From a virus, in the IMG/VR virus record IMGVR_UViG_3300020061_000001, positions 1-64,000 of that record: DNA of 64,000 bases. One strand, given 5' to 3'. Of the stretch, positions 2,507-15,957 are shown in pieces. The notes under the pieces were generated by a model, which was not told the origin of the DNA, searched no databases, and saw nothing but the letters and a program-made list of their open reading frames with translations. Position numbers and translations under genes: made by a program. Positions within the stretch are counted from its first letter, which is position 1, and every line of letters begins with the position of its first letter.

Positions 2507-2535
2507 TTGTGTTTATTTTATAAATAATGTATAAT
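2507..2535 (+). promoter_or_regulatory. Promoter of tRNA operon 1
   Basis: TTGTGT (2507-2512), 17-bp spacer, TATAAT (2530-2535). The first ATG starts 6 nt after the -10 box, so the leader ORF is expected at +1 of the transcript. Confidence 0.9.
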
Positions 2536-2541
2536 GGAAGT

Positions 2542-2634
2542 ATGAGTGAAAGAATAGCAGTTATGACGAAGCGTACAACCCCAATTGTGCAAGCTACTGC
2601 TATGGTCATTCGCGGAGGCAAGGCCAAACTGTAG
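2542..2634 (+). CDS. Leader peptide 1 of tRNA operon 1
   Basis: A 30-codon leaderless ORF ending in TAG. Counts are Ala 4, Thr 4, Met 3, Arg 3, Ile 3, Val 3, Lys 3, Gly 2, so 25 of 30 codons are for amino acids whose tRNAs follow in this operon. It samples synonymous codons widely: all four Thr codons, Val GTT/GTG/GTC, Ala GCA/GCT/GCC, Arg AGA/CGT/CGC, Ile ATA/ATT, Lys AAG/AAA. No residue is Trp, Tyr, Phe, Cys, His, Asn or Asp. I infer a ribosome-stalling sensor for charging of these tRNAs. No functional peptide product is needed. Confidence 0.75.
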   Translation: MSERIAVMTKRTTPIVQATAMVIRGGKAKL

Positions 2635-2693
2635 CCCTATTATTTTTAGCTTATAGCATGAAAAATAATAGGGGACAAATCAGTCCCTTTTTT
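2635..2693 (+). promoter_or_regulatory. Attenuator of tRNA operon 1
   Basis: A 13-bp perfect hairpin forms between 2635-2647 and 2661-2673. Its 5' arm begins directly after the leader stop codon. Its 3' GGG overlaps the 5' arm of an intrinsic terminator (GGGAC 2672-2676, GTCCC 2683-2687, then six T). The two structures compete. A ribosome finishing the leader would cover the upstream arm and allow termination. One stalled earlier would leave the antiterminator intact. Confidence 0.75.
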
Positions 2694-2698
2694 AGTAG

Positions 2699-2773
2699 GG
2701 GTCTGTAGCTCAACAGTAGAGCATTTGCCTTTTAAGCAAAATGTCATGGGGGCAGCACCCATCAGACCCTCCA
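2699..2773 (+). tRNA. tRNA-Lys(TTT)
   Basis: Acceptor GGGTCTG/CAGACCC, anticodon arm TTTGC-CTTTTAA-GCAAA and encoded CCA are clear. The T-loop is GGCAGCA instead of the usual TTCRANY. It starts 6 nt after the attenuator T-run. Confidence 0.9.
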
Positions 2774-2796
2774 AATTAGATTTTAACAATTCAAAA

Positions 2797-2879
2797 GGTA
2801 GGACTCCCTATCGAACTTAGCTAGGACGTGGGAGATGATGTGTAGTACTCACAAGAAGTTTATTCTCCTCCTGCCTCCA
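2797..2879 (+). ncRNA. tRNA-like element with encoded CCA
   Basis: A 7-bp acceptor-like stem (GGTAGGA/TCCTGCC) is followed by T and CCA. Inside, CTCCC/GGGAG closes a 21-nt loop and TGTG/CACA closes a 7-nt loop (TAGTACT). No ordinary D-arm or TTC T-loop is visible. It may be a degenerate or unusual tRNA. Confidence 0.4.
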
Positions 2880-2883
2880 ATAA

Positions 2884-2958
2884 TGGCAATTAGCTCAGTG
2901 GTAGAGCGCTACTCCGATACAGTAGGTGTCCTAAGTTCAAGTCTTAGATTGCCAACCA
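2884..2958 (+). tRNA. tRNA-Ile(GAT)
   Basis: Acceptor TGGCAAT/ATTGCCA, D-arm GCTC/GAGC, anticodon arm CTACT-CCGATAC-AGTAG (C at position 33) and T-arm CTAAG-TTCAAGT-CTTAG. CCA is encoded. Confidence 0.88.
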
Positions 2959-2961
2959 TGT

Positions 2962-3037
2962 GCCGATTTAGCTCATCAGGTAGAGCAGGTATCTTGTAAG
3001 TACCAGGTGTTCGGTTCAAGTCCGAAAGTCGGCTCCA
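2962..3037 (+). tRNA. tRNA-Thr(TGT)
   Basis: Acceptor GCCGATT/AGTCGGC, anticodon arm GGTAT-CTTGTAA-GTACC, T-loop TTCAAGT, encoded CCA. Confidence 0.93.
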
Positions 3038-3042
3038 TATAT

Positions 3043-3127
3043 GTCGCATTAGTGTAACGGTAGCACACTCGGCTGGCCATCCTAGGTAGGCTCCGAGTAG
3101 AACGGTTCAATTCCGTTAAAGACTCCA
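3043..3127 (+). ncRNA. tRNA-like element with 20-nt anticodon-position loop
   Basis: D-arm GTGT-AACGGTA-GCAC, T-arm ACGG-TTCAATT-CCGT and terminal CCA are tRNA-like. The anticodon stem CTCGG/CCGAG (3068-3072/3093-3097) closes a 20-nt loop, and the acceptor pairs only at its outer 3 bp. It contains GGC and GCC triplets, so Ala or Gly identity is possible but unproven. Confidence 0.4.
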
Positions 3128-3216
3128 ATTTAACAATTTAGTAATGAGAGCGCCCAACTTTGCATGAAGTGGCATTGATAGTATCCAGCATGACATGGAC
3201 TAGCTCGTGAAATTAT

Positions 3217-3294
3217 CGTGATGTGATGTTTAACGGATTAGCATGTCTGACTTCCAATCAGATCGTCAGGGTTCGAATCCCTGCACCACGACCA
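3217..3294 (+). tRNA. tRNA-Gly(TCC)
   Basis: Acceptor CGTGATG/CACCACG with one mismatch, anticodon arm TCTGA-CTTCCAA-TCAGA, T-arm CAGGG-TTCGAAT-CCCTG, encoded CCA. Confidence 0.88.
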
Positions 3295-3295
3295 A

Positions 3296-14494: not shown

Positions 14495-14497
14495 TAT

Positions 14498-14581
14498 GGC
14501 TTCATGGCGAAACGGTTCACGCAGGGAGCTTAAACCTCCCATCCTTCGGGACTGATGGTTCGAGTCCATCTGAGGCCACCA
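14498..14581 (+). tRNA. tRNA-Leu(TAA)
   Basis: Acceptor GGCTTCA/TGAGGCC, anticodon arm GGGAG-CTTAAAC-CTCCC, variable arm TCC-TTCG-GGA, T-arm GATGG-TTCGAGT-CCATC, encoded CCA. Confidence 0.94.
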
Positions 14582-14586
14582 TTTCC

Positions 14587-14613
14587 TTGACAAGAATCGG
14601 AAAAGGTTATAAT
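14587..14613 (+). promoter_or_regulatory. Putative promoter of second HNH gene
   Basis: TTGACA (14587-14592) and TATAAT (14608-14613) are 15 bp apart, followed by the same AATTAAAT context as the promoter at 3749. Spacing is short, so strength is uncertain. Confidence 0.5.
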
Positions 14614-14649
14614 TAAATTAATAACCAAAATAAACATCCGAGGATTGTT

Positions 14650-15045
14650 ATGGACAAAAAGAAAGAACAGCTAGGAATGAATCCTAGCACAGCTAATGGT
14701 CGGCTGTTAAAAGACTTATTATTCGACTTTGCCGTTAAAGCTGGTCATGTATGCTACAGGTGTAAAAAGCCACTAGATAGAGAAACATTTTCTATAGAGC
14801 ATATGGAACCTTGGTTAGATAGCGAAGACCCAATCAAATTATTTTTTGACTTGGAGAATATAGGTTATAGCCACCTGCCTTGTAATGTCGCAGCATCAAG
14901 GAAAATATTAGCAGATCATGGTCAGATTGGAATGTACAACAGAGGTTGTCATTGCCAGCCTTGCCGAGACGCAAAATCAGCGTGTCGAAGAAAGGCTTAT
15001 ACACCAGAAAAACGTAGAGAAATTTACTTAAAAACTGGTTATTAG
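14650..15045 (+). CDS. HNH endonuclease in tRNA array
   Basis: 131 residues with HNH core CYRCKKPL, FSIEHMEPW and GYSHLPCNVAAS. The C-terminal GQIGMYNRGCHCQPCRDAK is a cysteine-rich appendage common in phage HNH proteins, especially of actinophages. GAGG precedes the ATG. It interrupts tRNA operon 3 between Leu and Ser tRNAs, as expected for a homing nuclease tolerated among RNA genes. Confidence 0.88.
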   Translation: MDKKKEQLGMNPSTANGRLLKDLLFDFAVKAGHVCYRCKKPLDRETFSIEHMEPWLDSEDPIKLFFDLENIGYSHLPCNVAASRKILADHGQIGMYNRGCHCQPCRDAKSACRRKAYTPEKRREIYLKTGY

Positions 15046-15067
15046 TCCCACCTGGCACACCAAATAT

Positions 15068-15156
15068 GGATAGGTGCAAGAGCGGTTTATCTGGATAGTC
15101 TTGAAAACTATTGTGGGGTAATTCCCACCGTGGGTTCGAATCCCACCCTCTCCGCC
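15068..15156 (+). tRNA. tRNA-Ser(TGA)
   Basis: Acceptor GGATAGG/CCTCTCC with one mismatch, anticodon arm ATAGT-CTTGAAA-ACTAT, long variable arm GTGGG..CCCAC, T-arm GTGGG-TTCGAAT-CCCAC, discriminator G, encoded CCA. Confidence 0.92.
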
Positions 15157-15162
15157 ATATAT

Positions 15163-15239
15163 GTTGTAGGTAGCTTACTGGTTGCAAGCGCCTCCCTGTG
15201 AAGGAGGAGATGCGAGTCCGATTCTCGTTCTACACCCCA
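15163..15239 (+). tRNA. tRNA-His(GTG)
   Basis: Anticodon arm CCTCC-CTGTGAA-GGAGG. An extra 5' G faces discriminator C, the His identity element. Acceptor TGTAGG/TCTACA has a T-C mismatch at pair 1-72. T-loop TCCGATT, encoded CCA. Confidence 0.9.
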
Positions 15240-15269
15240 AATTAGCTTTCCTATATACTTAGAGTATAT

Positions 15270-15710
15270 ATGTCAGGTGAAACACAAAAAAATGAAAGTG
15301 GTTGGACAGTAGATACTCTAAAAGAGTATGTCGCTCAACGGTTTGAAGATAATCAAAAAGCTATAGATGCTGCGCTTGTATCGCAAGAGAAAGCAGTAGC
15401 TGCTGCTTTAGCTGCAACAAAAGAAGCTATTAATAAAGCAGAAGTTTCTACTGAGAAACGATTTGAGAGCGTTAATGAGTTCAGAGCTCAACTAGCAGAC
15501 CAATCTAGTACTTTAATGCCAAGGCAGGAATATACTGTTCAGCATAAAGCATTAGAAGGCAAGTTAAGCGATCTTACAGACAGAATTAATATATCTGATG
15601 GTAAGGCTAAAGGCTCCCAGCTAACAGTAGGTAGAATATACGGTGCGATTGCAGCAGCAGTTGCGATAATATCAATTATTGTAGTAGTCGCTAATAACTT
15701 ATTTAAATAA
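15270..15710 (+). CDS. Coiled-coil protein with C-terminal membrane anchor
   Basis: 146 residues. WTVDTLKEYVAQRFEDNQKA is followed by alanine-rich helical repeats and one membrane helix at the C-terminus (about 122-142). Similar proteins with a C-terminal anchor are frequent in phages, and their role is unknown. It lies inside the tRNA operon with TATACT at 15254-15259, 10 nt before the ATG. Its stop codon directly abuts tRNA-Gln. Confidence 0.78.
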   Translation: MSGETQKNESGWTVDTLKEYVAQRFEDNQKAIDAALVSQEKAVAAALAATKEAINKAEVSTEKRFESVNEFRAQLADQSSTLMPRQEYTVQHKALEGKLSDLTDRINISDGKAKGSQLTVGRIYGAIAAAVAIISIIVVVANNLFK

Positions 15711-15787
15711 TGGAAAGTGGCCAAGTAGGCAAGGCACCTGGCTCTGAACCAGAAAATTCGTAGGTTCGACCCCTACCTTTCCAGCCA
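15711..15787 (+). tRNA. tRNA-Gln(CTG)
   Basis: Acceptor TGGAAAG/CTTTCCA, D-arm GCC/GGC, anticodon arm CCTGG-CTCTGAA-CCAGA, T-arm GTAGG-TTCGACC-CCTAC, discriminator G, encoded CCA. Confidence 0.94.
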
Positions 15788-15792
15788 AATAC

Positions 15793-15879
15793 GGTGATAT
15801 GTCAGAGTGGTTTATCGAGCAGCTTTGCTAAAGCTGTGGGCCAAAAGCCCCGTAGGTTCGAATCCTACTGTCACCGCCA
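15793..15879 (+). tRNA. tRNA-Ser(GCT)
   Basis: Acceptor GGTGATA/TGTCACC, anticodon arm CAGCT-TTGCTAA-AGCTG, long variable arm GGGCC..GCCCC, T-arm GTAGG-TTCGAAT-CCTAC, discriminator G, encoded CCA. Confidence 0.93.
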
Positions 15880-15884
15880 AATAT

Positions 15885-15957
15885 TCCCACGTCGTCTAAA
15901 GTAGGACGCAGCCCTTTGAAGGCTGTTATCTGGGTGCGAGTCCTAGCGAGGGAGCCA
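15885..15957 (+). tRNA. tRNA-Gln(TTG)
   Basis: Acceptor TCCCACG/CGAGGGA with one mismatch, D-arm GTCT/GGAC, anticodon arm CAGCC-CTTTGAA-GGCTG, T-loop TGCGAGT (G at 55), discriminator G, encoded CCA. It is the last tRNA of operon 3. Confidence 0.9.

What the first reader, a model, noticed from the sequence alone, without database searches (positions are those of the whole stretch)
2507..15957. Three phage tRNA operons each controlled by a leader-peptide attenuator that senses the very amino acids it supplies
The sequence shows three units with the same order: TTGTGT-N17-TATAAT promoter, tiny ORF starting 6-7 nt after the -10 box, competing antiterminator and terminator hairpins, then tRNAs. 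Leader content matches the tRNAs behind it. Leader 1 is 25/30 Ala/Arg/Gly/Ile/Lys/Met/Thr/Val. Leader 2 has Tyr-Tyr-Glu-Glu-Glu before Glu/Tyr/Glu tRNAs. Leader 3 carries Asn/Asp/Cys/Gln/His/Leu/Phe/Pro/Ser/Trp in 19 of residues 2-21. The 20 amino acids are split among the operons almost without overlap. Amino-acid attenuation of this kind is classical for biosynthesis operons (trp, his). I know of no report of it controlling phage tRNA arrays. Inference: the phage measures tRNA depletion and switches on only the needed subset.
Basis: partly seen in the sequence, partly recalled or inferred. Interest (0 to 1): 0.97.

Follow-up and report, generated by a model that had tools for sequence, protein, structure and literature searches.

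The report
Phage tRNA operons with codon-sensing attenuators
A bacterial virus keeps its transfer-RNA genes in three sets, each behind a tiny test gene built from codons for the amino acids that set serves, so that a ribosome running short of those tRNAs would stall there and switch that set on; the same design, unannotated, sits in about 190 sequenced mycobacterium phages, where it could be tested now.

Summary
Three tRNA operons each start with TTGTGT-N17-TATAAT, an ATG 6-7 nt after the -10 (leaderless), a 14- or 30-codon ORF, and mutually exclusive antiterminator and terminator hairpins. Confidently assigned tRNAs split the 20 amino acids 8/2/10 without overlap. Two IMG/VR relatives keep the design: G004 has all three leaders, G003 has operon 1; peptides diverge but composition stays (26/27 cognate residues in one). 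Independent support comes from isolated cluster C mycobacteriophages (about 190 records): MFALLSLSSSLRLS precedes Ser/Leu tRNAs, MRTNRLNRQQ precedes Gln/Asn tRNAs, ...PRWRYQP... precedes Pro/Trp/Tyr tRNAs, all unannotated where inspected. In a blind scan of 319 tRNA-cluster heads, the 13 best leader-to-tRNA matches all belong to these two lineages. A ribosome-footprint folding model validated on E. coli trpL predicts readthrough when the ribosome stalls in the cognate codons and termination when it reaches the last codons. Best explanation: ribosome-mediated transcription attenuation, classical in logic, applied to phage tRNA genes with multi-amino-acid sensors. I found no prior report in the searchable library. 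Not shown: transcription, stalling, induction. Distant relatives carry tRNA arrays without detected leaders.

The parts
2507..2535 (+). promoter P1 (TTGTGT-N17-TATAAT)
   Evidence: same promoter in front of operon 1 of G003 and G004
2542..2634 (+). leader 1 ORF, leaderless, sensor for A,R,G,I,K,M,T,V
   Evidence: homologues in G003 and G004
2635..2673 (+). antiterminator 1 (arms 2635-2647 and 2661-2673)
2670..2693 (+). terminator 1 (arms 2671-2676 and 2683-2687, U-run 2688-2693)
2699..5017 (+). tRNA operon 1: Lys, Ile, Thr, Gly, Arg, Ile, Val, Met, Arg, Ala, Lys plus unassigned tRNA-like genes and an HNH ORF (3786-4148)
12422..12450 (+). promoter P2
12458..12502 (+). leader 2 ORF, sensor for Tyr and Glu (YYEEE)
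   Evidence: homologue in G004
12482..12514 (+). protector hairpin 1:2 (GAGGAAGAA 12482-12490 with TTCTTC 12509-12514 and neighbours), which keeps terminator 2 as the default without a ribosome
12505..12539 (+). antiterminator 2 (GGGC 12505-12508 / GCCC 12536-12539)
12532..12554 (+). terminator 2 with U-run
12562..12806 (+). tRNA operon 2: Glu(ttc), Tyr(gta), Glu(ctc)
13034..13062 (+). promoter P3
13070..13162 (+). leader 3 ORF, sensor for N,D,C,Q,H,L,F,P,S,W
   Evidence: homologue in G004
13135..13190 (+). antiterminator 3 (13135-13141 / 13184-13190, upper stem 13149-13155 / 13167-13173); its 5' arm lies in the non-cognate codons GGC GCT CGG
13188..13217 (+). terminator 3 with U-run
13533..15957 (+). 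tRNA operon 3: Trp, Asp, Asn, Pro, Phe, Cys, Leu x3, Ser, His, Gln, Ser, Gln plus HNH-like ORF 14650-15045

Best explanation
Each tRNA operon is controlled by a ribosome-mediated transcription attenuator. RNA polymerase starts at a phage promoter and makes a leaderless mRNA whose first codon opens a 14- or 30-codon test ORF rich in codons for exactly the amino acids whose tRNAs lie downstream. If all those charged tRNAs are present the ribosome keeps up with the polymerase and reaches the last codons, where its footprint masks the 5' arm of the antiterminator; the intrinsic terminator folds and transcription stops before the tRNAs. If any monitored tRNA is scarce (uncharged, degraded, or cut by a host defence tRNase) the ribosome stalls inside the sensor, the antiterminator folds first and ties up the terminator's 5' arm, and polymerase reads through into the tRNA genes. 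In cluster C phages two operons appear to use a simpler variant: the cognate codons lie in the 5' arm of the terminator-like hairpin, so the stalled ribosome itself occludes it. Shown here: sequence anatomy, conservation, composition tracking, and a folding model with a working positive control. Inferred: translation of the leaders, termination, stalling, and the biological input (tRNA depletion rather than plain amino-acid starvation, which more tRNA would not cure).
For: (1) Composition tracks tRNA content in two distant lineages with unrelated leader sequences. Window 24/29, 5/13, 22/29; G004 26/27, 6/13, 17/24; Ser/Leu leaders 8-10 of 13 (p down to 1e-6); Gln/Asn leaders 3-5 of 8-10 (p 1e-4 to 1e-2). 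(2) Blind scan of 319 tRNA-cluster heads: the top 13 of 46 candidates are all from these lineages, best unrelated p = 0.008. (3) Model with the terminator 3' arm not yet made and a ribosome footprint masked, scored as the probability that the terminator 5' arm is tied up: trpL control is .07 free.70 at W11.72 at R12.07 at stop. Leader 1 in three phages is .50-.80 for all stalls up to three positions before the stop, then about 0 to .14 in win and G003 and .04-.38 in G004. Leader 2 of the window.57-.60 for T6-N13.13 free.08 at stop. Leader 3 of G004: about .6 for codons 2-18.20-.29 from 19 to stop. Upstream shuffles reach the observed difference in 0-2% of cases for 5 of 7 leaders; trpL 1%. (4) Cognate residues fill the modelled sensing part and drop beyond it: window leader 3 16/17 inside versus 6/12 beyond, G004 15/17 versus 2/7; leader 1 covers all 8 of its amino acids in all three phages; leader 3 covers 9/10 inside codons 2-18, the tenth (Phe) following at codon 19 or 20. 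(5) Terminator 1 changes by compensatory pairs among win, G003 and G004, and antiterminator pair T:A becomes C:G (read by eye). (6) In cluster C Gln/Asn leaders the hairpin is weakened or lost exactly when the A-site is at N, R, Q, Q or stop of the conserved NRQQ*. (7) Ser/Leu and Gln/Asn regions occur in 193 records each and the Pro/Trp/Tyr one in 190; the leader ORFs carry no annotation in those inspected.
Against: No transcription or translation data. A whole-RNA equilibrium model shows no switch even for trpL, so everything rests on folding order. G004 leaders 1 and 2 are not significant against shuffles (7/100 and 32/150). In the window's leader 3 a ribosome at the stop codon no longer masks the antiterminator (.71). 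Without any ribosome leaders 1 and 3 are predicted open; leader 2 is closed in the window (.13) but less so in G004 (.48). Ser/Leu and Gln/Asn hairpins of cluster C lack U-runs, and the Myrna-type large-array leader shows no clear ribosome-dependent switch. Ser(gct) cannot read the UCN codons of the Ser/Leu leader, so matching is by amino acid, not strictly by codon. Promoter-like sites inside the operons could bypass the attenuators. Most distant relatives with tRNA arrays lack the design.
Confidence: 0.82

Rival explanations
1. The short ORFs encode functional small peptides, or arrest peptides recognised by sequence, and the hairpins are ordinary terminators of short transcripts.
For: ORFs are conserved and have proper promoters; the C-terminal IRGGKAKL / IGGKAKL of leader 1 is well kept.
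Against: Different operons of one phage have unrelated leaders; substitutions between relatives mostly swap one cognate residue for another; the well-kept end lies where the codons border the antiterminator; composition follows the tRNA set in unrelated leaders.
Confidence: 0.06
2. Attenuation operates, but the signal is general translation (ribosome supply, host shut-off) rather than particular tRNAs: no ribosome or any slow ribosome opens the operons.
For: Leaders 1 and 3 are predicted open when no ribosome is on them; leader 1 of the window and the Ser/Leu leaders use more different codons than expected (p about 0.005).
Against: A general sensor needs no partition of 20 amino acids among leaders that mirrors the tRNA sets; leader 2 of the window is predicted closed without a ribosome.
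Confidence: 0.15
3. The composition match is coincidental or follows from shared ancestry of leader and tRNA sequence (for example leaders derived from tRNA fragments).
For: Only two lineages carry it, so independent origins are few; in cluster C Ser/Leu the leader contains CCTCC, complementary to the tRNA-Ser acceptor strand.
Against: Probability values, the proteome-window control and the blind scan.
Confidence: 0.03

Closest known systems
Ribosome-mediated transcription attenuators of amino-acid operons (trp, his, leu; multivalent thr and ilvGMEDA) and of the pheST tRNA-synthetase operon (from general knowledge)
   Same: Short leader ORF with regulatory codons, mutually exclusive antiterminator and terminator hairpins, stall gives readthrough; multi-amino-acid leaders are known for thr and ilv.
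   Different: Regulated genes are tRNA genes of a phage; sensors cover 8-10 amino acids instead of 1-3; the 20 amino acids are divided among three sensors; leaders are leaderless mRNAs; leaders 1 and 3 default open without translation.
T-box riboswitches
   Same: Sense tRNA charging to control a terminator, often upstream of synthetase genes.
   Different: Direct tRNA binding, no leader ORF; no T-box or other Rfam leader hit in the window.
Phage tRNA arrays as counter-defence against host tRNases (van den Berg 2023, PMC10264068; Azam 2024, PMC11555353)
   Same: Same class of tRNA-rich phages, including cluster C1 mycobacteriophages; gives the plausible input signal.
   Different: The 2023 paper contains no mention of attenuation, leaders, operons or promoters; regulation of the arrays was not addressed there.

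Membership tests
Ribosome-mediated transcription attenuation (trp/ilv type) | short leader ORF between promoter and regulated genes | tested here: met
   Three in the window, conserved in G003 and G004, and found in cluster C phages. Translation itself untested.
Ribosome-mediated transcription attenuation (trp/ilv type) | leader enriched in codons for the amino acids tied to the regulated genes | tested here: met
Ribosome-mediated transcription attenuation (trp/ilv type) | mutually exclusive antiterminator and terminator, switched by ribosome position | tested here: met
   Modelled with trpL control for the window lineage, with weak points in window leader 3 and G004 leaders 1 and 2; inconclusive for Myrna-type large-array leaders.
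Ribosome-mediated transcription attenuation (trp/ilv type) | intrinsic terminator with U-run before the structural genes | tested here: met
   Window lineage. Not met for Ser/Leu and Gln/Asn hairpins of cluster C.
Ribosome-mediated transcription attenuation (trp/ilv type) | readthrough rises when the cognate charged tRNA is scarce | not testable with these tools
   needs RNA-seq or a reporter
T-box riboswitch | T-box motif and specifier stem, no leader ORF | tested here: not met
   Rfam scan of the window found only tRNAs and a tmRNA
Sequence-specific arrest peptides (tnaC, ermC type) | conserved arrest sequence independent of cognate tRNA supply | tested here: not met
   Homologous leaders diverge in sequence while keeping composition; different operons have unrelated leaders

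The most novel reading that the evidence does not exclude
In this lineage and in Ceeclamvirinae (cluster C) phages, tRNA arrays are not constitutive codon supplements but inducible replacement kits: each operon carries a codon panel that samples the tRNA pool and releases replacement tRNAs when host tRNases or degradation remove them. Two structural solutions (antiterminator switching, and occlusion of the terminator arm by the stalled ribosome) serve the same logic.
Probability: 0.6. Interest if true: 0.93.

Novelty: new variant of a known kind. Interest (0 to 1): 0.9.

Why it matters
Why phages carry tRNAs is a question more than 50 years old (PMC10264068). If the arrays are switched by tRNA depletion, this gives a direct, phage-encoded readout of which tRNAs run short during infection and supports the tRNA-loss hypotheses over static codon compensation. 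It would also be, to my knowledge, the first attenuation control of tRNA genes themselves and the widest multi-amino-acid attenuators. Cluster C phages grow on M. smegmatis, so it can be tested at once.

Tried and rejected
Whole-RNA equilibrium folding: rejected because it fails on trpL. DNA-similarity searches with the operon: only single tRNA genes matched. Search for the same design in Streptomyces phages (Quantum, Kela, Frankenweenie, Jay2Jay, Annadreamy), T5, Caulobacter phage Cr30, Synechococcus phage BUCT-ZZ01, IMG/VR relatives G001, G002, G007, G008 and the M. avium tRNA-array plasmid pS2b: none convincing with a leaderless-ORF scan; leaders with a Shine-Dalgarno site or more than 420 nt upstream would be missed. 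Strict codon-anticodon matching was considered and dropped: Ser(gct) does not read the UCN codons in the Ser/Leu leader. Literature searches in the open-licence library found no report of attenuated phage tRNA operons; bioRxiv-only and subscription papers are largely not covered.
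Full report
What is there. The window is 64 kb of a 99,006-base IMG/VR virus record, 39% G+C, with no close relative among GenBank phages. A conserved protein (9278-10312, -) is 56-57% identical to its homologue in Mycobacterium phages Myrna and Phabba and 34-37% in Streptomyces phages. 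Three tRNA operons begin at 2699, 12562 and 13533. Each is preceded by TTGTGT-N17-TATAAT, an ATG 6-7 nt after the -10, a short ORF and hairpins. One other TTGTGT-type promoter with an ATG directly behind it was found in the record, on the minus strand before a 112-aa ORF, so leaderless starts occur elsewhere in this phage.

tRNA sets. ARAGORN and Rfam together give set 1 = A,R,G,I,K,M,T,V, set 2 = E,Y and set 3 = N,D,C,Q,H,L,F,P,S,W. These partition the 20 amino acids exactly among the assignable tRNAs; a few tRNA-like genes with odd anticodon loops are unassigned.

Composition. Leader 1 has 24/29 residues in set 1, leader 2 has 5/13 in set 2, leader 3 has 22/29 in set 3. Inside the part that the folding model marks as sensing, the counts are 23/27, 5/8 and 16/17. 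No window of the same length in 132 ORFs of the phage reaches leader 1 or leader 3; leader 2 is reached by 24 of 24,917 windows.

Close relatives. G003 has the operon 1 leader MSAAIATMTKRTTTVASFAVAIRGGKAKL. G004 has all three: MTKTAITTRKRTTTVAGIAMVIGGKAKL, MTNSVSYYEEEYNS and MSELCTQHQPSQLWNPDSFLVGART, in front of matching tRNA sets (Val, Met and Trp of G004 were read by eye). In the G004 leader 1 every residue after Met except the last is cognate. The terminator of leader 1 differs in sequence but pairs in all three: GGGAC/GTCCC, GGAGC/GCTCC, GGGAGT/ACTCCC (structure-aligned by eye).

Isolated phages. Upstream of the three tRNA clusters of Myrna, Phabba and ScoobyDoobyDoo, of Lukilu and Tonenili, and of the metagenomic G006, leaderless ORFs follow a TACAGT-like -10 by 6-7 nt. 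Ser/Leu clusters: MFALLSLSSSLRLS, MFARLSLSSSLRLS, MFTRLSLSSSLRLS, MFAFRLSLSSSLLS, MIAFRLSLSSSLVS. Gln/Asn clusters: MRTNRLNRQQ, MRTNVNRQQ, MRTSSQQNRQQ, MFTTAMNRQQ. Large arrays: VFTIADTTTRGTLMRAAYRPWHIKH and relatives, or MFEIRPPEPRWRYQPSLGR where the first tRNAs are Pro, Trp, Tyr. BLAST finds these regions in 190-193 phage records, with no leader annotated in those inspected. For the large arrays almost all amino acids are in the set, so the match there is weak or uninformative (p 0.03-0.8), except for the Pro/Trp/Tyr reading of Lukilu (p 0.004).

Blind test. Applying one rule (TANNNT, 6-7 nt, ATG/GTG, 7-45 codons, stop before the tRNA) to every tRNA-cluster head among the loci held at that point gives 319 heads and 46 candidates. 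The 13 best composition matches are all from the window lineage and cluster C; the best unrelated candidate has p = 0.008. Related phages are counted separately here, so the 13 are not 13 independent cases: there are about five distinct leader types in two lineages. The window's own leader 1 is missed by this scan because ARAGORN misses the first Lys tRNA.

Mechanism model. Whole-RNA equilibrium folding always favours the terminator, for trpL too, so it cannot judge attenuators. A model of the decisive moment (terminator 3' arm not yet transcribed, ribosome footprint P-12 to P+15 masked) reproduces trpL: low when free, high at the second Trp codon and just after it, low at stop. For leader 1 of three phages, stalls up to three positions before the stop tie up the terminator's 5' arm and the last positions release it (nearly fully in win and G003, partly in G004). 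For leader 2 the YYEEE block lies in the sensing part, and in the window the RNA without a ribosome is closed. For leader 3 codons 2-18 sense; in G004 the ribosome at or near the stop releases the terminator, in the window the release is only partial and transient. Shuffling the upstream sequence reaches the observed contrast in 0-2% of cases for five leaders, 7% and 21% for two G004 leaders. In cluster C Gln/Asn leaders the hairpin's 5' arm is made of the codons CAG CAG TAG, so a ribosome at N, R, Q, Q or stop weakens or prevents it; the Trp-Arg-Tyr-Gln codons of the C1 large-array leader likewise lie in one arm of a long inverted repeat (sequence, by eye). Ser/Leu leaders of the Myrna type show sequestration by upstream pairing; Myrna-type large-array leaders show no clear switch.

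Input signal. Ribosomes cannot tell uncharged from missing tRNA. Making tRNA helps only against missing tRNA, so depletion (host tRNases, decay) is the sensible input; this is inference. It fits the phage's RNA ligase and polynucleotide kinase (32353-33636, 33643-34545), a tRNA-repair type pair known from T4 (general knowledge), and the published view of phage tRNAs as counter-defence (PMC10264068, PMC11555353).

Limits. No expression data. Promoter-like sites before the HNH ORFs (about 3750 and 14584) and after terminator 3 (about 13231), seen by eye, could feed parts of the operons. Many more distant relatives carry arrays without detectable leaders, so the design is lineage-restricted. Window lineage and cluster C share a distant ancestry, so one ancient origin with strong divergence and two origins are both open.

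Novelty. The logic is that of classical attenuators; the target (phage tRNA genes), the breadth of each sensor and the partition of the code among sensors are new as far as the searchable literature shows. I therefore call it a new variant of a known kind. It works like a trp/ilv attenuator; membership is met on anatomy and untested on response.

Noticed in passing
window 19046-19398 (+): tmRNA gene (Rfam 86 bits) with a TATAAT site just upstream; tmRNA would rescue stalled ribosomes, so it may interact with leader stalling.
   Followed up: no
window 3043-3124, 13686-13780, 4462-4536, 13861-13935: tRNA-like genes that ARAGORN misses or cannot name, two with enlarged anticodon loops (about 16-20 nt), one with a 6- or 8-nt loop. 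A tRNA with an unnamed anticodon (tt) also occurs in Myrna and G006.
   Followed up: partly
window 13230-13531 and L082 (about 3380-3860, - strand): About 300-nt structured RNA (MFE -92 kcal/mol) between attenuator 3 and tRNA-Trp, conserved in G004 with its own TATAAT site, no Rfam match. Possibly a new noncoding RNA.
   Followed up: partly
window 32353-34545 (+): Adjacent RNA ligase and polynucleotide kinase, a tRNA-repair type pair.
   Followed up: no
window 3741-4148 and 14581-15045: HNH or HNH-like ORFs inside the tRNA operons, each behind its own promoter-like site, which could transcribe downstream tRNAs past the attenuators.
   Followed up: no
L045, L046, L064, L140 (cluster C Gln/Asn operon): Inverted repeat between the promoter spacer (ACCCCGGAG) and the terminator-like hairpin (CTCCGGGGT), changed on both sides in ScoobyDoobyDoo (CCCCGTAGG / CCTACGGGG). 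Readthrough RNA from upstream could use it as an antiterminator, or it is an operator.
   Followed up: no
L057, L060, L044, L062: Cluster C phages carry a tRNA called Pyl(cta) by ARAGORN, a candidate amber suppressor.
   Followed up: no
window 17506-18818 (-): R2K ATP-grasp and LemA-family genes side by side.
   Followed up: no
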